A DNA stretch of 64,000 nucleotides from Atopobium sp. oral taxon 416 (GTDB lineage: Bacteria; Actinomycetota; Coriobacteriia; Coriobacteriales; Atopobiaceae): assembly GCF_018128285.1 (NCBI RefSeq), contig NZ_CP072380.1, positions 2,356,001-2,420,000 of the forward strand, in the 5' to 3' direction. Made by a program: the position numbers and the translations under genes. Below, in pieces: positions 7,340 to 58,113 of this stretch (positions within the stretch are counted from its first letter, which is position 1; each line of letters opens with the position of its first letter). The notes under the pieces are model-generated. The model worked only from the letters and a program-made list of their open reading frames with translations. It did not search any database and was not told where the DNA came from.

Positions 7340-8094
7340 ACATCGTCATCAACGGAATGGACCAGCCCGTAGAAATCAAAGCAGGAAAGCCAACAGCACT
7401 GCGTATCTATAACCAAGCGCTCTATGCCCGAATATGCCGCTCTTTCGAAAGTGGCTTAGGCACCGAAGCGCTTGAGCCATATTCTATTTGGGATGGAGAA
7501 ACGGAAGTGTCTCCACGCGACGGAACAATTGTTATTGGAGATCCTCTTGATTTGCCTTGGGATCACCGGCTTCTGGCTCAGCATCTGGCTGAACGATTTA
7601 TCGCATGTCTACAGGAAGACGAAGAGACAAGGCAAACAATTGATTCTCAAAGCCAGGAGATCATGAAAGCTATTGAGAGAATAGCTTTCAGTTTTAATAG
7701 CGAGTATTCATTTACCAAAGATTGGGACCTCACAAAATTTATAAAACTCTTTGGTCTGGAGCCTGAACAAGACCCCGGCGAACCTTACATTGATAGCTGT
7801 ATCCGCTTTACGGAATATATCGCTGATATGGGGTTTAAAGGGGTTATTATTTTCATGAATCTCGGACTTTTTTTGACAAAATCCGAGCTCAAAACGTTCC
7901 TTGACACCATAATTTTTCTTAATTTGAATGTGCTGCTACTTGAAGGAGCTAGTTATATTCCACCAAAGGGATTTGGTGGAAATATAGCCATTGACGAGGA
8001 CTTTGTTGAGGATATTAAGAATGAAACCAGTCAGAATGGCGTCCCTTTGCAGGAGGGAATTTGCACCAACGGTTTTGGTGCAGTGACGTTCTGA
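7336..8094 (+). CDS. csn2: CRISPR adaptation protein Csn2, reading into the first repeat
   Basis: Csn2 is the II-A-specific ring-forming DNA-end-binding protein needed for spacer acquisition. This copy has 252 residues, longer than the roughly 220 of the Streptococcus pyogenes protein. The core is recognisable: the fold of the N-terminal strand (MNIVINGMDQPVEIKAG), GVIIFMNLGLFLTKSELKTF and LNLNVLLLEGA. The last shared segment, IDEDFVEDI, corresponds to the normal C-terminus. About 20 further residues follow, and the stop codon (8092-8094) lies inside CRISPR repeat 1, so there is no separate intergenic leader. ATG at 7336 overlaps the cas2 stop. Confidence 0.9.
   Translation: MNIVINGMDQPVEIKAGKPTALRIYNQALYARICRSFESGLGTEALEPYSIWDGETEVSPRDGTIVIGDPLDLPWDHRLLAQHLAERFIACLQEDEETRQTIDSQSQEIMKAIERIAFSFNSEYSFTKDWDLTKFIKLFGLEPEQDPGEPYIDSCIRFTEYIADMGFKGVIIFMNLGLFLTKSELKTFLDTIIFLNLNVLLLEGASYIPPKGFGGNIAIDEDFVEDIKNETSQNGVPLQEGICTNGFGAVTF
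8062..8082 (+). promoter_or_regulatory. Leader-repeat junction with inverted repeat
   Basis: TGCACCAA (8062-8069) and TTGGTGCA (8075-8082) form a perfect 8-bp inverted repeat with a 5-base loop. One arm is in the leader end and the other in the first repeat, which begins at 8072. The leader itself must lie within the 3' codons of csn2. A role in positioning integration is inference only. Confidence 0.5.
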
Positions 8095-10935
8095 CTGGTA
8101 ATGACACAGTACTTGCCATCCGTAGAGCCGTTGTTGTGTTTTGGTGCAGTGACGTTCTGACTGGTAATGACACGAACAATTCGCTAAATTTGGGCGGGAC
8201 ATCGTTTTGGTGCAGTGACGTTCTGACTGGTAATGACACCGTAGCGCTGGCCACGATGCAAGCTTGTTAGTTTTGGTGCAGTGACGTTCTGACTGGTAAT
8301 GACACTCATAGATTAAGGAAAAAAATGGATGTTAGGTTTTGGTGCAGTGACGTTCTGACTGGTAATGACACATGAGCGGGATTGGTCCACCTGTTAGCGT
8401 GTTTTGGTGCAGTGACGTTCTGACTGGTAATGACACCACGCGATACTGGCACCAGCTCATCGCATTGTTTTGGTGCAGTGACGTTCTGACTGGTAATGAC
8501 ACCGCTCAACTTTTGGAAACCATCAAGTGAGAGTTTTGGTGCAGTGACGTTCTGACTGGTAATGACACTGTTCTGACTGCTTGACCTCAGAATCTTTTGT
8601 TTTGGTGCAGTGACGTTCTGACTGGTAATGACACAACCGACTCCGCCTGTGGCGGCAAATAACGGTTTTGGTGCAGTGACGTTCTGACTGGTAATGACAC
8701 ACTAAGTCCGCACTCAAGCAGACGAACGAGTTTTGGTGCAGTGACGTTCTGACTGGTAATGACACGTAAATGCATACCACAGAGTTTTGTCGTATGTTTT
8801 GGTGCAGTGACGTTCTGACTGGTAATGACACGGATATCGTAGATTTACCACAGAGAAAATAGTTTTGGTGCAGTGACGTTCTGACTGGTAATGACACCAA
8901 AACTCGAAGAAGTCCAAAAATATTGTGTTTTGGTGCAGTGACGTTCTGACTGGTAATGACACAATGGTGAGACATTTGATGACGCGCGCAGAGTTTTGGT
9001 GCAGTGACGTTCTGACTGGTAATGACACCAAAACTCGAAGAAGTCCAAAAATATTGTGTTTTGGTGCAGTGACGTTCTGACTGGTAATGACACAATGGTG
9101 AGACATTTGATGACGCGCGCAGAGTTTTGGTGCAGTGACGTTCTGACTGGTAATGACACTATTAAGGTTACCTGCCTCTATAAGTTCCTGTTTTGGTGCA
9201 GTGACGTTCTGACTGGTAATGACACTACCGCGACGCAACAGATGCTTGAGTCGGTGTTTTGGTGCAGTGACGTTCTGACTGGTAATGACACAAGCACCAT
9301 GTGTATAGGCCGTGCTGTCATGTTTTGGTGCAGTGACGTTCTGACTGGTAATGACACTCTCTTTCCTCTAAATATCTTTCACTACAGGTTTTGGTGCAGT
9401 GACGTTCTGACTGGTAATGACACCACTAAGTCCGCTCTCGATCAGACAAATAAGTTTTGGTGCAGTGACGTTCTGACTGGTAATGACACTTCCACCATCT
9501 GCAGCTAGCGTTTCGCCCTGTTTTGGTGCAGTGACGTTCTGACTGGTAATGACACCACGGCCTGGTCGTTACTAGCCTTGTAGCTGTTTTGGTGCAGTGA
9601 CGTTCTGACTGGTAATGACACGCCTGATAATAGTCTAGGAAGTGCTGGGCGGTTTTGGTGCAGTGACGTTCTGACTGGTAATGACACAGCACTTACGCCT
9701 GGCAGCTTAAGCGTGAGTTTTGGTGCAGTGACGTTCTGACTGGTAATGACACTGTATAGACTAGATCTAAGTACTGTCTAAGTTTTGGTGCAGTGACGTT
9801 CTGACTGGTAATGACACAGAATTTACCTCTTTGGCACCAATTGTTAGGTTTTGGTGCAGTGACGTTCTGACTGGTAATGACACGACTTAAACAAGCACGA
9901 CTTAACGCTATGAGTTTTGGTGCAGTGACGTTCTGACTGGTAATGACACCTATATTTTTTGTTTCTGCCGCAACTACCAGTTTTGGTGCAGTGACGTTCT
10001 GACTGGTAATGACACAACCATGTCGAATCATACTGCTCTAATTCGGTTTTGGTGCAGTGACGTTCTGACTGGTAATGACACAATGAGCGGAATTGGTCCA
10101 CCTGCTAGTGTGTTTTGGTGCAGTGACGTTCTGACTGGTAATGACACTAAACAAACCCGCGAGATGCAAGCATAAAAGTTTTGGTGCAGTGACGTTCTGA
10201 CTGGTAATGACACTAACCCGCTTGAGGACGAGGTCTCTTATGCGTTTTGGTGCAGTGACGTTCTGACTGGTAATGACACTGAAAATGGCAATGTGGCATC
10301 AAAGGATTAGTTTTGGTGCAGTGACGTTCTGACTGGTAATGACACACTTGCAGTCGGCGTCCCTGATGGTAAAGAGTTTTGGTGCAGTGACGTTCTGACT
10401 GGTAATGACACCTGTGAAAGGAAATGCAATATGGGGAGATGGTTTTGGTGCAGTGACGTTCTGACTGGTAATGACACAAAACTTGAGAACGAGGGCTATA
10501 ACATGGTGTTTTGGTGCAGTGACGTTCTGACTGGTAATGACACAAGTCGTTGACAAAAATGGGAATCCATTTGTTTTGGTGCAGTGACGTTCTGACTGGT
10601 AATGACACACGAATATTTTGCAAATGTTACAGGTTATGTTTTGGTGCAGTGACGTTCTGACTGGTAATGACACACGAATATTTTGCAAATGTTACAGGTT
10701 ATGTTTTGGTGCAGTGACGTTCTGACTGGTAATGACACACAAGTCGATTACTCCATCGGCAATCTGGTGTTTTGGTGCAGTGACGTTCTGACTGGTAATG
10801 ACACTCAGACAGGAGCCCCTTGGCCTTCAGGCTAGTTTTGGTGCAGTGACGTTCTGACTGGTAATGACACACGAATATTTTGCAAATGTTACAGGTTATG
10901 TTTTGGTGCAGTGACGTTCTGACTGGTAATGACAC
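8072..10935 (+). CRISPR. Type II-A CRISPR array, 44 repeats and 43 spacers
   Basis: A 36-base repeat (starts GTTTTGGTGCAGTGACG, ends CTGGTAATGACAC) occurs 44 times with no difference that I can see. There are 33 spacers of 30 bases and 10 of 29 bases. The repeat pairs with the tracrRNA, so the array is read on the plus strand from the csn2 side, and the leader-proximal end is at 8072. The spacer pair at 8898-8992 recurs at 9029-9123. The spacer at 10609-10637 recurs at 10674-10702 and 10871-10899. Two further pairs are diverged versions of each other: 8372-8400 with 10082-10111, and 8701-8729 with 9424-9453. The distal end shows no decayed repeat. An ISL3 end lies directly after it. Confidence 0.98.
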
Positions 10936-10944
10936 TATGCGGTG

Positions 10945-51884: not shown

Positions 51885-52925
51885 TCAAGGGCGTCCGTGC
51901 TTCCTGCTTACTGCGACGCCTGCTGCAATAAGAGCGCAGCCACCAACAAGAAGTAAAAGCATCAGCACCAGGCTGTTCGTATCGCTCATGTCGGCGACAC
52001 CCTCTTTGGGCGTCTCCTTAGGCGACTTCTCTGTGTTCGTAATCTCGAAACCGGTTGTCTTTGAGGCGTCATTCGAATCCTGAATCCTGCTCACGGAACT
52101 CACGTAGCCTTCCGGCACATCGACCTCACGCACAGACCAGTCGCCCGCGCCTTCCCAGGAAAAGCTCCAGCTGTTCGAGGCGTCGAGTGTAACTTCCTTG
52201 TAGAGCTCTGTGCCATCCATAATCTGGATGCGCACGGACTCGGGCCTTTTCGTCCTCGTATCCTTCCAGAGCTTCGTGACGCGGAAGCGATTGGAGGGTC
52301 TCTCCTCCTTCGCCATCTTTGCTGCAACGCTCACATCTGTCTGCCAGCTACCAACAGCCTGGCCAGCCTCTCTGCTCTGTACTGTCTGCGGCACGCTCAC
52401 GAGAATCGGGCTTGCCGTGTACGTTATCCCCTCAACCGTTATCTGGTCAGCCACGACAAGGTAAAGTCCGCGTGCAAGGCCGGAGAAGCTCGCCTGGGTG
52501 CCGGATGCAGTGACGTCCTTCCCAGAGAAGCCGGAAGGGTCCTGCACCACACAGCCGGAGAGCGTCTCTGCTGCCGTGCGGAGCGTATCTGCGCTCGTCG
52601 AGGAATCGAACGTCTCAGGGCTCATGGCCGGGTCATCCGCGCTGTAGCCAAGGCTTTCGAGCGCCTTGTCGCAGGCAGGCACATTTGAAAGCGTGCCATC
52701 TTCTGCCATCTCGGCCACACGATAGGCATGGAACTGCTGCCCCGCAACAGCACCCATGACGGTAAGCGTGCCAGTCGTAGGCGGCACAGCTGCCAGAGCC
52801 ACGCCCGGCACGAGCGCAAGCGCTGCAGCCACAGCTACCACCACTGTAATCAGTAACTGCCTGAGCGTGACATAGCGTCCCAACACTTCCAGACCTTCAT
52901 TTCTCTTCAGAACTTCGCGCTTCAT
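51885..52925 (-). CDS. Minor pilin with a Cna-B domain and no LPXTG motif
   Basis: 346 residues. The signal peptide is LRQLLITVVVAVAAALALVP with ALAA. The N-terminal pilin-like part is TGTLTVMGAVAGQQFHAYRV and GLARGLYLVVADQI. A Cna-B domain follows (FRVTKLWKDTRTKRPESVRI, DWSVREVDVPEGYVSSV). The C-terminus has the expected hydrophobic helix and basic tail (LVLMLLLLVGGCALIAAGVA, then SRKHGRP), but the preceding sequence is VADMSDTNS rather than LPXTG. It overlaps the sortase stop by four bases (ATGA). It is probably the basal or linking pilin, and its anchoring mode is unclear. Confidence 0.85.
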   Translation of the reverse strand: MKREVLKRNEGLEVLGRYVTLRQLLITVVVAVAAALALVPGVALAAVPPTTGTLTVMGAVAGQQFHAYRVAEMAEDGTLSNVPACDKALESLGYSADDPAMSPETFDSSTSADTLRTAAETLSGCVVQDPSGFSGKDVTASGTQASFSGLARGLYLVVADQITVEGITYTASPILVSVPQTVQSREAGQAVGSWQTDVSVAAKMAKEERPSNRFRVTKLWKDTRTKRPESVRIQIMDGTELYKEVTLDASNSWSFSWEGAGDWSVREVDVPEGYVSSVSRIQDSNDASKTTGFEITNTEKSPKETPKEGVADMSDTNSLVLMLLLLVGGCALIAAGVAVSRKHGRP

Positions 52926-53961: not shown

Positions 53962-55491
53962 TTAGGCCTCTTTGTCCTTCTTGTGGAGCTGGTAGATGCC
54001 GAAGGCCGCTGCTGCAGCAAGAACTGCGCCGCCGATATAGAGCACAGTCGTGCCCATGCCGCCTGTGGACGGGAGAATGGAGCCCCTCTTGTTCACGACA
54101 TCGGTTGAGAGGGAGCCAGCATTGGTGTCTGCAGTCCACGTAGCCGTGCCTGTCTTCGTGTCGCCGGAAAGCGAGAGGAGCTTTGGGTCATCTGCGGTCG
54201 TGTCATGCTGTGCGGAAATCGTGAACTCGATATCGCTGATAGTGTTGTATCCGGTGGGAGTCTTGGTCTCGGAGAGCTTGTAATCGCCGTCGTCGAGGCC
54301 CTTGAACTCGAAGGACGTCTCGTTGCCTGCGGTGTACTGCTTGACCTGGTTCCATTTCCCACTTGCATCCTTCTTGTACAGGGTGAAGCCTGCACCAGCA
54401 AGGGACTTCTTGTTCTGGTCAACCTTGTTCACGGTTACCTTGTAGGTGAAGACGATGTTTTTGTCCTCAGGGGTCTTACCAGTCTTGCCGTCTCCGCCCC
54501 TGTTCGGGTTATTGGAGTAGGTGAGATCGACTTTGTTGGGATTGCCGGCTGCACCGATCTTGGCATCGGAATTCAGTTTGGCGGTGTAGGTTACGACTAT
54601 CTTGGACTCGCTGGTGATGCCGTCGATGGCCTTCAGACCCTCTTTGTCATTCTCGGTCCAAGTGAGGACCCGGCCGCCGGTGTAGTTGGTATCAGTACCA
54701 GAGTAGTCTACAATTGCCTCGGTGAAGTGAGAGGTGATGTCGATACCCTTGGTGTCCACGGCATCCTTGTACAGCGTGATCTTGGCGTTCTTGGCGGTAT
54801 ACGTCAGGCCCTTGGATATGGTATCCGTGAAGACATACTTGTAGGTCGAATAGTCAGCATAGTTGCTGGGCAGCGTGCCGCTGATCTGGTAGGACACGTC
54901 GTCGTTAACATCAGCGTCAGCAGAGTCCTGCCAGTCAGAGGTCACCCCCGTGGAGTCGTTCGTGTCCTTGACCTTCTTGGTCACAGTCGGGACACCAGAC
55001 TTGATGGCCGACGTGGCGTCGCCCACGACCTGGACAATGAACTTCGTGTAGGCGTCGGAGGTGTCAGTCTGGGTGCCGTCCTTGTCCTTCACGAGGTAGT
55101 AACCTGCATCGAGGCCATCGATGACCGTGGAGCCCTCAGCGGACGTGACGGTCTTAGCCGGCGTCGTGAGCGTAAGCTTCTCTTCAAGCTGTTCAATGGT
55201 CATCGTCCTGTTCGCAAGCTTCTCAGCAACCTCGGAGGCTGTCTCGGTACCAGTATATGTGACACCGGGGCCCCACTGCACGTTGGAGAGCGTCTTGGTG
55301 CCATCAGTTCCTGTCGAGAGGTCACCTGTGAAGATCTGGTATGCCTCATAGGTGTGGCCCGTAGTGGTACCCTTGAGCGTCAGCGTGTAGGTGTCTGCAG
55401 CCAGCGCGTTTGCCGGCAGCAGCACGAGCGCCATGGCCACTGCCAAAATGGCAGATAGGGCGCACTTGAGCAGATCCTTAGTCTTTCTCAT
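53962..55491 (-). CDS. Major pilin backbone, LPXTG-anchored (SpaA-like)
   Basis: 509 residues. The signal peptide is CALSAILAVAMALVLLPANA with LAAD. The N-terminal domain ends near the pilin-motif-like PTVTKKVKD (about 190). Middle isopeptide-type domains include VFTDTISKGLTYTAKNAKI, and the C-terminal Cna-B/SpaA domain has KSLAGAGFTLYKK and the E-box YKLSETKTPTGYNTI. The sorting signal is LPSTG at 473-477, followed by a membrane helix and HKKDKEA. It is the first structural gene of the operon after lepB and is followed closely by the sortase. It is likely the polymerised shaft subunit. Confidence 0.93.
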   Translation of the reverse strand: MRKTKDLLKCALSAILAVAMALVLLPANALAADTYTLTLKGTTTGHTYEAYQIFTGDLSTGTDGTKTLSNVQWGPGVTYTGTETASEVAEKLANRTMTIEQLEEKLTLTTPAKTVTSAEGSTVIDGLDAGYYLVKDKDGTQTDTSDAYTKFIVQVVGDATSAIKSGVPTVTKKVKDTNDSTGVTSDWQDSADADVNDDVSYQISGTLPSNYADYSTYKYVFTDTISKGLTYTAKNAKITLYKDAVDTKGIDITSHFTEAIVDYSGTDTNYTGGRVLTWTENDKEGLKAIDGITSESKIVVTYTAKLNSDAKIGAAGNPNKVDLTYSNNPNRGGDGKTGKTPEDKNIVFTYKVTVNKVDQNKKSLAGAGFTLYKKDASGKWNQVKQYTAGNETSFEFKGLDDGDYKLSETKTPTGYNTISDIEFTISAQHDTTADDPKLLSLSGDTKTGTATWTADTNAGSLSTDVVNKRGSILPSTGGMGTTVLYIGGAVLAAAAAFGIYQLHKKDKEA

Positions 55492-55683: not shown

Positions 55684-56295
55684 CTATTGGAGAAAGCCGA
55701 AAGTTGGGAGCGGCCAGATGCGCAGAACGAGCTTACCTACGATCTGCTCTGTGGGTATGCAGCCGACCTGCTGCAGGCGCGAATCGACGGAGACGAGTCT
55801 TCTGTCGCCCATAACGAAGTACTTGCTCTCGGGCACCTGATACGGAAGGCTGATGTCGCACTGCCCCAGGCCCTTCGCTCCATCCGAAAGATAGGGCTCC
55901 TGGAGTTCCTGACCATTCACGTAGACCGTCCCGTTGTCATCGATATCGACCCAGTCGCCAGGACCTGCGATGATGCGCTTCGTCAGGATCTTGTTGTTGA
56001 AGGAGAACGCCACGAGATCGCCTGTGCTGTAGGAGCCAGAGCGCGTGGCAAGCACGATGTCCCCCTCTTCGAGCGTCGGCGCCATCGATTCGCCGTAGAT
56101 CCGAAAGAGCGGGAACACGAAAAGGGACAGCAGCACTGCCGCTGCGAAAGCAGTGGCAAGCACGATCGTGAGCGTGCGATTGCGGTCATGGTGATGAAGC
56201 TGGGACTCGGTGCGCGCAAGCTCTGCTTCGACCTCTCTAAGGGTCGGAAGCTCAGTCTTTGCAGCCCTCTCGCTCTCGGATGGCATCTCGCTCAT
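55684..56295 (-). CDS. lepB: Signal peptidase I of the pilus operon
   Basis: 203 residues. It has a cytoplasmic N-terminus, one membrane helix (TIVLATAFAAAVLLSLFVFP, about 43-63), and the S26 catalytic dyad Ser70 (YGESMAPTLEEGDIV) and Lys106 (ILTKRIIAGPGD). The C-terminal box is VMGDRRLVSVDSR, where MGDNR is usual. Its ATG overlaps the stop of the upstream coiled-coil gene (ATGA). A dedicated signal peptidase is common in sortase-pilus loci and is likely needed for pilin processing. Confidence 0.93.
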   Translation of the reverse strand: MSEMPSESERAAKTELPTLREVEAELARTESQLHHHDRNRTLTIVLATAFAAAVLLSLFVFPLFRIYGESMAPTLEEGDIVLATRSGSYSTGDLVAFSFNNKILTKRIIAGPGDWVDIDDNGTVYVNGQELQEPYLSDGAKGLGQCDISLPYQVPESKYFVMGDRRLVSVDSRLQQVGCIPTEQIVGKLVLRIWPLPTFGFLQ

Positions 56296-56812
56296 GCGGT
56301 GTTCGCCTCCTTCTTGGAGGCGGCACAGTCCTTTACGGTAGAAGAAGCATCCGTCTCGGACGTCTTTGAGGCTTCGTCGACAGCGCCTTCCTCTTTGTCT
56401 TCTGACAATTCGGATTCCGTCTTACCATCAGGGACTTCTGGTTCGTGCTCCTCTTCATGGCTGGAAACGTTACCAGCCCGTTGCATGGAAACATTCCATC
56501 CATAGAGATCGATAGCGTGCTGAGCGGCAGTAAAGACGCCGGCAAGGCGAAGCGATGCCTCGGCGAGCGATTCTGAATCATCGATTGCGATGCGCTTGTC
56601 TGCGAGCTGATCCTTTGCCTCTGTAAGCTCCTGCTTCAGGCGCTCGTTCTCTGCAACGGCGTCCTCCAGGAGCTCCAGGAGCTGGAGCCTTGTCAGCTTT
56701 GAAAGATCATACTCAGCCGAGATGCCAGAGACCGCGCTTGGAGAACCCCCCCCCGAACGGGTTTTGCAGGGTTCACGAGCTTTGTCGTCCTGTCAGTAAA
56801 CAATCTGCTCAT
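56292..56812 (-). pseudogene. Coiled-coil protein heading the pilus operon, out of frame at a G9 tract (phase-off?)
   Basis: From ATG 56812 the frame reads MSRLFTDRTTKLVNPAKPVR and then meets nine consecutive G (56746-56754 on the plus strand as C). With nine G the frame runs to an early stop. With ten G it would continue in GSPSAVSGISAEYDLSKLTR, LQLLELLEDAVAENERLKQE, a coiled coil, SESLAEASLRLAGVFTAAQH, then an acidic tail to the stop overlapping lepB. This second half is open without interruption to 56292. Similar small proteins, often mislabelled as DNA repair proteins, precede signal peptidase genes in pilus loci. Slipped-strand switching is the most likely explanation, and a homopolymer sequencing error is the alternative. 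Confidence 0.75.
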
Positions 56813-56985: not shown

Positions 56986-57012
56986 AAAAGCCAGCCTTGA
57001 GCTGGCTTTTTT
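56986..57012 (+). terminator. Strong terminator upstream of the pilus operon
   Basis: AAAAGCCAGC, loop CTTGA, GCTGGCTTTTTT. A second tight hairpin (CCGGAC-atg-GTCCGG, 56965-56979) lies just before it. No gene that it would serve on the plus strand was recognised. Confidence 0.7.
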
Positions 57013-57096
57013 CATGTCCAAAGCTTGATCGGCTGGGAATTTCCTGGCGTCATCTATATACGGTGCTATGGTGCTTTCGTCTGACAGGGAGTGGCA

Positions 57097-58113
57097 GATG
57101 GCCTACTTCCTCAAGAGGACGCGCAACAAAGAAAGGGCTCTATCTCCAGATATACGAGAGCCACTGAGACCCCAAGCGAAGCCATACCGCGAACAGGTCG
57201 GTGAAGACGCTTTCCGCCAAGGAGCGCACATGGGCGCTCTCGGGAGATGGCTGGACGGACGTCCCCGACGGGAGGGACGGAACATCGTTTCGCTACAAGG
57301 TGGCCGACGGCGACTTTAGGTACACGTTCGTGGACGAAGGCGCAAGGTCGAGCTCCTAGAGAGACGCGTCGTCACGTACAGCCCCTCTCTTGCCAGGAAA
57401 CAGACCTGCGAGATAAGCCAGCAGGTGGAGAAGGCAAGGGCGCTTAAGGCGGCAGCCGCGAAGAGGTCCGAGTACGGCGACAGCGCCAAGTATGTCACCT
57501 TCTCCCCCGTCGACGGCGAGGGCGAGGTCAGGGAGGACATGAAGGTCGCGACCACCTTAAACCACGAGGCGATAAGGAAGGCGAAGACCTTGCCGGCTAC
57601 AACATGATCGTGACCTCGAAGACCACGATGGAACCCCTGGCCATATATGGCACCTACCACAGGCTCTGGAGGATCGAGGAGAGCTTCAGGGTGATGAAGT
57701 CCAAGCTCGATGCGAGGCCCGTCTATCTTCAGAGGCAAAGCACAATCACGGGCTACTTTCTCGTGTGCTACATCGCCGTGCTGCTCATGAGGCTCCTGCA
57801 GGTGAAGGTGCTGGGAGATAGCTTCTCCTCCAAGGACATTATGGGGCTCTGTCGCGGCCTCGATGTGTGCCGCACCTCGGAGAGGAGGTATGCCAACATA
57901 TCCAGGAGAAGCCCCATCATCGAGGAGCTGGCGTCAAGGACAGGGCCTCCGCTGCTTCACTTCAACCTCACCGAGGGCGACGTGAAGGCGATCTCCTCCT
58001 GCACGCTCGCCCATGCTACGCGGCGAAGGGAAAGGCCCCTCTGCCGGCAGGAAGCGCGGCTGAAGGGCCCCATAGCACCATATCGGGGATCGAAAAACCA
58101 AAGTCTGATATGA
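57097..58113 (+). pseudogene. IS1634-family transposase, internally deleted
   Basis: The start is MAYFLKRTRN, then LQIYESHWDPKRSH in another frame. The later part is ARALKAAAAKRSEYGDSAKY, YNMIVTSKTTMEPLAIYGTY, the catalytic YHRLWRIEESFRVMKSKLDA, ITGYFLVCYIAVLLMRLLQV and ISRRSPIIEELASRTGPPLL. The middle catalytic region is missing. It is a different subgroup from the copy at 12.6 kb. It is inactive. Confidence 0.8.

What the first reader, a model, noticed from the sequence alone, without database searches (positions are those of the whole stretch)
56740..56812. G9 tract puts the first gene of the pilus operon out of frame: probable phase-variable switch
Nine consecutive G (read on the minus strand) lie about 20 codons into the leading gene. 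With one more G the whole coding region to 56292 is open, with a coiled coil, a conserved-looking ESLAEASL segment and a stop overlapping lepB. Long G runs at exactly the frame break are the standard signature of slipped-strand phase variation. Because the gene is coupled to lepB and the pilin genes, switching could change pilus expression through coupling or polarity, or only this protein.
Basis: partly seen in the sequence, partly recalled or inferred. Interest (0 to 1): 0.8.

Follow-up and report, generated by a model that had tools for sequence, protein, structure and literature searches.

The report
Poly-G switch in pilus operon leader
A run of nine Gs splits the first gene of a gut-type bacterium's pilus operon into two reading frames; some related bacteria carry such runs at other spots in the same operon, so it is probably a random on/off switch of a known type acting on an unusual gene.

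Summary
Nine Gs (window 56746-56754, minus strand) lie 19 codons after the ATG at 56812. That frame stops at 56693. The next frame runs open to a TGA overlapping lepB's ATG and has no ATG/GTG/TTG before its conserved domain. Downstream lie lepB, a major pilin, a class C sortase and two more surface-protein genes.

The gene is real: the part after the tract matches 21 of 140 family genomes (Atopobiaceae, by named relatives) and precedes lepB in 25 of 30 named loci.

New evidence favours a switch. Of 9 family genomes with domain, LepB and pilin in the locus, 5 carry a G run of 8 or more at the operon head: here, twice in this gene's tail (G9 and G10 in two genomes of one genus), once in a leader, once in the pilin signal peptide; 0 of 10 with domain and LepB only (shorter scan). 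Two full operons in other families have none. The own genome also has runs of 16, 21 and 28 Gs at surface-related loci.

Variation within the species could not be tested; assembly error is not excluded. G-tract switching of sortase pili is known in Bifidobacterium; here the switched gene differs.

The parts
56746..56754 (-). G9 tract at the frame break
   Evidence: sequence; only G9 in the window; one of 7 runs of G>=9 in the genome
56693..56812 (-). upstream reading frame: ATG MSRLFTDRTTKLVNPAKPVRGG.., runs through the tract and stops at a TGA; weak AAGG 13 nt before ATG
56292..56750 (-). downstream reading frame (152 codons counted from within the tract), no ATG/GTG/TTG of its own before the conserved domain; stop overlaps the lepB start
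56481..56711 (-). conserved helical domain (long helix, then SLAEASL.. helices), no Pfam or NCBIfam match
   Evidence: 0 families in Pfam and NCBIfam at E 0.01; 21 of 140 family genomes match the part after the tract; alignment of 33; model mean pLDDT 85, pTM 0.48
55684..56295 (-). lepB, signal peptidase I, with strong AAGGAGG site
   Evidence: PF10502 4.9e-35, TIGR02227 1.3e-36
53962..55491 (-). major pilin, SpaH/EbpB type, LPXTG
   Evidence: NF033902, TIGR04226
52922..53902 (-). class C (pilin) sortase
   Evidence: NF033745 4.3e-83
51885..52925 (-). minor pilin with Cna_B domain
   Evidence: PF05738
46815..51791 (-). 1658-aa surface protein, last gene considered part of the cluster
   Evidence: PF05738; weak TIGR04226 below its cut-off
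56986..57010 (-). terminator-like hairpin (AAAAGCCAGC-TCAA-GGCTGGCTTTT) upstream of the operon
   Evidence: read from the sequence; not listed by the consensus scan
56997..58113 (+). broken transposase remnant upstream of the operon, in several frames
   Evidence: DDE_Tnp_1 hit below its cut-off; frames

Best explanation
The G9 tract is a slipped-strand (replication slippage) on/off switch in the first gene of a sortase-pilus operon of an Atopobiaceae bacterium. In the sequenced state the ribosome reads into the wrong frame and stops about 50 nt after the tract, so the conserved helical protein is not made; with tract lengths of another class modulo three the two halves are one protein. The protein probably works with the LepB encoded next to it in pilin export. 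Losing it would remove that partner and could also lower lepB-pilin expression through an untranslated stretch of about 400 nt. Shown: tract, frame break, conserved domain, operon order, G runs in the same operon of some relatives. Inferred: length variation in this species, the protein's role, any effect on pili.
For: Frame break exactly at the tract and no usual start after it. The part after the tract is open for 152 codons and its domain is conserved. The domain lies before lepB on the same strand within 1 kb in 25 of 30 named loci, and 7 of 30 show domain-LepB-PilA-SrtC-PilB in that order. G runs of 8 or more at the operon head in 5 of 9 family genomes with domain, LepB and PilA in the fetched locus, 0 of 10 with domain and LepB only (their scan ended at LepB; up to LepB the figures are 4 of 9 and 0 of 10), 0 of 2 with truncated loci; no C run of 8 or more in those stretches. 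Positions: N-terminal part of the domain gene (own), tail of the domain gene (G115 G9, G117 G10), leader (G008 G10), pilin signal peptide out of frame with its ATG (G046 G8). G115 and G117 differ by one G at the aligned tract and have only 2 runs of 9 or more G each in about 2.5 Mb, one of them here. Expected about 0.02 versus 3 lineages. Own genome: G16 108 nt before an FctA-type LPXTG pilin gene, G21 in a near-copy of that upstream DNA before a 100-aa ORF and then a VWA/DUF7601 protein, G28 in a glycosyltransferase pair. Precedent in Bifidobacterium, where listed pilus tracts are 8-13 long.
Against: No second strain, reads or population data of this species were available. Other G/C runs in genes of this assembly also sit at frame breaks (an iorB-like gene, two transposases, an HsdR-like gene), so decay or assembly error can also put breaks at runs. 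The tract is absent from the two other genomes of the genus. Two named loci of other families with the full gene order (L050, L051) and 13 further genomes of the order have no such run. Three of the own genome's seven runs of 9 or more G are not at surface loci. The G115/G117 tails also differ by two other single-base run changes and a 30-base gap. No effect on pilins is shown, and lepB has its own strong ribosome-binding site.
Confidence: 0.7

Rival explanations
1. Assembly or sequencing error: the true tract has another length and the gene is simply intact in all cells.
For: Homopolymer counts are the usual weak point; Penno et al. found a different majority length from the annotated one at one locus. 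In this assembly an iorB-like gene is broken at a G8 and again elsewhere, and other breaks lie at G7/C7 runs.
Against: 7 of 54 classified runs lie inside one uninterrupted coding frame, including a C8 in a serC-like gene and a C9 in a kinase gene. Of 24 frame-change candidates in 220 kb only the one at this tract has any run of 5 or more within 25 nt (that scan missed the iorB break, and most of its stretches had been picked around G runs). Runs of 16-28 G were retained, so the method did not simply collapse long runs. Relatives, assembled separately, carry runs in the same operon. A wrong count would not by itself exclude a switch.
Confidence: 0.14
2. A real but fixed frameshift: the gene is a young pseudogene.
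For: Transposase debris lies directly upstream; broken genes exist elsewhere in the genome.
Against: The 152 codons after the tract have no stop and keep the conserved residues; the five downstream genes listed in 'parts' are single open frames.
Confidence: 0.08
3. Recoding: the ribosome or RNA polymerase slips on the G run, so some full-length protein is made from this sequence without any DNA change.
For: The two frames differ by one step and the run offers slippery codons (sequence).
Against: Relatives have no run at this position; the runs sit at different places in different lineages and differ in length between two genomes of one genus, which fits DNA slippage better.
Confidence: 0.06
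4. Leader-peptide attenuation as in Streptococcus gallolyticus Pil1: the short frame is a regulatory peptide whose length sets transcription of the operon.
For: Same logic of a repeat inside a short 5' frame of a pilus operon; relative G008 has a G10 inside a small leader frame upstream of the domain gene.
Against: No convincing terminator follows the short frame here: one weak site, 0.8 expected by chance; the downstream frame is a conserved protein, not a leader.
Confidence: 0.02

Closest known systems
G-tract replication-slippage switch of sortase-dependent pili in Bifidobacterium breve UCC2003 and other bifidobacteria (Penno et al. 2022, PMC9187656; outline with abstract and sections 12, 15, 18, 21, 23 read)
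   Same: G run in the first gene of a sortase pilus cluster, two frames joined only at some lengths, Actinomycetota; tract lengths 8-13 in their Table 1.
   Different: There the switched gene is the pilin itself (Sec signal split from the LPXTG frame), and slippage and pili were measured. Here the switched gene is a small helical protein upstream of lepB; nothing was measured. A pilin signal-peptide case like theirs is seen in relative G046 (L052).
Phase-variable leader peptide of Pil1 in Streptococcus gallolyticus (PMC3894217; passages read)
   Same: Repeat in a 5' frame ahead of a sortase pilus operon changes where translation stops.
   Different: GCAGA repeats, short leader, terminator-based attenuation; no such terminator found here.
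Capsule-cluster inversions of Eggerthella lenta, another Coriobacteriia member (PMC13174815; listing with start of abstract only)
   Same: Reversible surface variation in the same class.
   Different: DNA inversion, not tract slippage; capsule, not pili.
Poly-G contingency genes of Neisseria, Campylobacter and others (recalled; Neisseria also in the listing)
   Same: Out-of-frame G run near the 5' end of a surface-related gene.
   Different: Other phyla and other target genes.

Membership tests
Homopolymer phase-variable gene | Run of about 8 or more identical bases in or just before a gene | tested here: met
   G9
Homopolymer phase-variable gene | Length change would change reading frame of an otherwise intact gene | tested here: met
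   two frames meeting at the tract, downstream frame open and conserved
Homopolymer phase-variable gene | Length varies within a population or between strains of the species | not testable with these tools
   one genome per species held; only a difference between two genomes of one genus (G9/G10, at another place in the gene) was seen
Homopolymer phase-variable gene | Length correlates with expression or phenotype | not testable with these tools
   needs cultures
Bifidobacterium-type pilus G-tract switch | Tract in the first gene of a sortase pilus cluster | tested here: met
   cluster genes, order
Bifidobacterium-type pilus G-tract switch | First gene is a pilin whose signal peptide and LPXTG frame are separated by the tract | tested here: not met
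   first gene is the helical-domain gene; pilin 53962-55491 is one open frame. Works like it, but is not a member in this respect
Sortase (class C) pilus operon | Pilin sortase, LPXTG pilins, signal peptidase in one run of genes | tested here: met
   same order in 7 of 30 named loci
S. gallolyticus-type leader attenuation | Intrinsic terminator just after the short leader frame | tested here: not met
   one weak site at 56362-56348, 0.8 expected

The most novel reading that the evidence does not exclude
Pilus operons of Atopobiaceae are a hotspot where G-run switches have arisen several times at different points (leader, helical-protein gene head or tail, pilin signal peptide), and in this species the switched part is not the pilin but a conserved partner of the dedicated signal peptidase, so pilin export rather than pilin synthesis is what flips.
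Probability: 0.35. Interest if true: 0.75.

Novelty: new variant of a known kind. Interest (0 to 1): 0.58.

Why it matters
If true, slipped-strand switching of sortase pili extends from bifidobacteria to Coriobacteriia (relatives of Olsenella), and it acts on a widespread protein with no Pfam or NCBIfam match that travels with LepB. That gives a natural way to learn what the protein does: compare cells with and without it in one culture. The recurrence at different sites would also suggest that selection favours variable pilus expression itself rather than one ancestral switch.

Tried and rejected
Single-protein scan of genome contigs: no relatives; followed by the allowed second scan with an alignment. 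Viral contigs: no relatives. Fold search of the model in PDB: 2 matches up to E 10, none significant; sequence profile against PDB: best E 0.18 (DivIVA and YabA among the 12), not used. A codon-usage test of long runs classed 54 runs as 7 in frame, 4 break, 15 edge, 28 non-coding; it missed both the finding itself and the iorB-like break (both classed edge), so I give it little weight. Of its 4 breaks, one (L039) is a gene boundary, and two are transposases and one an HsdR-like gene by my reading, not by family search. Terminator or promoter scan: nothing above chance. A tRNA-Ser holding a G8 was tried as an accuracy control and was inconclusive. Runs of G>=13 in the family (27 of 140 genomes) include contig-end and low-quality G stretches, so I used only individual clear cases. 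Around the runs of 9 or more G in G008, G045, G046, G115 and G117 I fetched 20 stretches and judged by eye that 3 concern surface-related genes (L105, L116, L107); the rest show no clear link, which argues that many G runs are neutral.

The statistic is post hoc: the six genomes were chosen after runs of 8 or more had been seen in the operon of four of them, it leaves out two family genomes with the full operon (G050, G052) and G076, and it treats runs as evenly spread.

Full report
The finding. On the minus strand nine Gs (56754..56746) lie 58 nt after an ATG at 56812. The ATG frame reads MSRLFTDRTTKLVNPAKPVRGGVLQ... and stops at a TGA ending at 56693. The neighbouring frame is open from before the tract to 56292, where its TGA overlaps the ATG of lepB at 56295. 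That second frame has no ATG, GTG or TTG between its last upstream stop and the conserved domain; the four start codons found between 56833 and the tract are all in the first frame. So in this assembly no usual start leads into the conserved domain.

What the gene is. The part after the tract has no Pfam or NCBIfam match. It has relatives in 21 of 140 genomes of the same family, the genome itself included; the domain alignment finds 29 of 272 genomes of the order at least 90% complete; and there are 30 named loci, among them Olsenella, Tractidigestivibacter, Erysipelotrichaceae, Clostridia and one Streptococcus. The shared part is 74-77 residues, modelled as a long helix followed by two shorter ones (mean pLDDT 85, pTM 0.48), with conserved residues around SLAEASL. 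In 25 of the 30 named loci a LepB relative follows within 1 kb on the same strand (two of the other five are cut by a contig end), and in 7 of 30 the whole order domain-LepB-PilA-SrtC-PilB is kept. In the window the same order holds: signal peptidase I, an SpaH/EbpB-type pilin, a class C sortase, a Cna_B pilin, a large surface protein.

Is the frame break meaningful? A G9 in a 64-kb window is not rare by itself (23 of 100 shuffles). The genome's G-run spectrum is 33 runs of 7, 17 of 8, three of 9, one of 10, then 16, 21 and 28. The three longest have surface-related neighbours: G16 108 nt before the ATG of an FctA-domain LPXTG protein; G21 in a 97%-identical copy of that upstream DNA, followed by a 100-aa ORF and then a VWA/DUF7601 protein; G28 inside a run of two glycosyltransferases. 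The glycosyltransferase tract also exists in another genus of the family (L100 of G120, flanks 91-94% identical). The other three runs of 9 or 10 are not at surface loci: one in frame in a kinase gene, one in a hairpin after a gene, one just before a 637-aa ORF.

The main new evidence. I scanned the head of the operon in all 21 matching family genomes, from 450 nt before the domain match to the pilin start, or only to the LepB start where no pilin was found in the fetched locus. Nine have the domain, LepB and PilA; five of these have a G run of 8 or more (own G9, G008 G10, G115 G9, G117 G10, G046 G8) and a sixth (G052) has a G7. Of ten with domain and LepB but no pilin in the locus, none has a run of even 7, nor do two with truncated loci. 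Since the second group was scanned over a shorter stretch, the like-for-like figures up to LepB are 4 of 9 and 0 of 10 for runs of 8 or more. C runs of 8 or more: none; one C7. Two named loci of other families with the full gene order (L050, L051) have no run of 7, and thirteen further genomes of the order have none anywhere in the fetched stretch. So the feature is confined to part of the family. The positions differ: here in the N-terminal part of the domain gene; in two genomes of one genus (G115, T. scatoligenes; G117, an Olsenella MAG) just after the domain, with nine and ten Gs at the aligned place and different frames after it; in G008 inside a small leader frame upstream; in G046 in the signal peptide of the major pilin, whose ATG is out of frame with the hydrophobic core. 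The G115/G117 tails also differ by two other single-base run changes and a 30-base gap, so the tail is variable in more than one way. Runs of 9 or more G in whole genomes: G115 two, G117 two, G008 five, G046 seven, G045 nine, G002 none. With even spacing 0.02 such runs would be expected in these operon heads; three lineages have one (P about 2e-6). That figure is post hoc and rough, but the excess is large.

How it probably works. Replication slippage changes the number of Gs; lengths of one class modulo three join the two halves, the others stop translation shortly after the tract. In the sequenced state the helical protein is absent. What the protein does is inferred: its usual place before LepB, and a charged, coiled-coil-like segment before the first membrane helix of LepB (my reading of the translation), suggest that it assists the pilus-dedicated signal peptidase. 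A second route, loss of coupling and polarity on lepB and the pilins across about 400 untranslated nt, is possible; a polarity effect was described at the B. breve loci. But lepB here has its own AAGGAGG site 10 nt before its ATG, so I rate it less likely.

Results against. No other strain or read set of this species could be examined. The tract is absent from the two other genomes of the genus, so the switch, if real, is young or was lost there. Some more distant relatives begin the protein almost at the conserved domain (e.g. L010), so the N-terminal part may matter little in general; this copy has no usual start there. In the same assembly other genes are broken at runs: an iorB-like gene at a G8 and again elsewhere, two transposases and an HsdR-like gene at G7/C7. 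Against these, runs in serC-like and kinase genes keep one frame, and of 24 frame-change candidates in 220 kb only this one has a run of 5 or more nearby (which missed the iorB case and used stretches mostly picked around G runs). I therefore keep assembly error at about 0.14.

Known or new. Penno et al. 2022 (PMC9187656; outline with abstract and sections 12, 15, 18, 21, 23 read) showed G-tract slippage in the first pilin gene of sortase pilus clusters of B. breve and listed tracts of 8-13 in several bifidobacteria. S. gallolyticus Pil1 (PMC3894217, passages) uses repeats in a leader peptide. In the capped listings (71 rows in all, of larger hit sets) I saw no paper on G-tract switching of pili in Coriobacteriia, nor on this helical protein; beyond the two papers above I saw titles and the starts of abstracts only. 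Hence: a new variant of a known kind.

Noticed in passing
L024:5003-5018 and L026:5012-5032 (genome 692352 and 995211): G16 and G21 in near-identical upstream DNA (97% over 382 nt) at two places, one before an FctA-type LPXTG pilin gene, the other before a short ORF and then a VWA protein: look like two promoter-region contingency loci made by duplication.
   Followed up: partly
L023:4996-5023 (genome 375595); L100 of G120: G28 between two glycosyltransferase genes, here joined into one 820-aa frame; at the same place in another genus a longer, interrupted G stretch.
   Followed up: partly
L048:4670-4830: G10 inside a small frame with an AAGGAG site that, by tract length, ends early or overlaps the start of the domain gene: a possible leader switch (my reading).
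   Followed up: no
L052:6162-6169: G8 in the signal peptide of the major pilin of Olsenella phocaeensis, ATG out of frame with the hydrophobic core, like the B. breve pilin switch.
   Followed up: no
L041:2900-3600 oriented (genome about 2421716, 1.7 kb beyond the window end): Large surface-protein gene with frame breaks; at a G8 near its end the anchor region reads into the next gene.
   Followed up: no
L156:1498-1504: HsdR-like restriction gene whose frame changes at a C7 run; label is my reading.
   Followed up: no
L029:2976-2983 oriented: iorB-like gene broken at a G8 and once more upstream; label is my reading.
   Followed up: no
window 8071-10936: Array of 36-base repeats (GTTTTGGTGCAGTGACGTTCTGACTGGTAATGACAC-like) at about 66-base spacing, CRISPR-like.
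   Followed up: no
genome-wide: The four G>=9 runs at 0.37-1.0 Mb read G on the plus strand, the three at 2.4-2.8 Mb on the minus strand, as if all lie on one replication strand.
   Followed up: no
L031:3028-3114: tRNA-Ser called by ARAGORN with a G8/C8 near its 3' end but no Rfam match at the gathering score; perhaps damaged or miscounted.
   Followed up: partly
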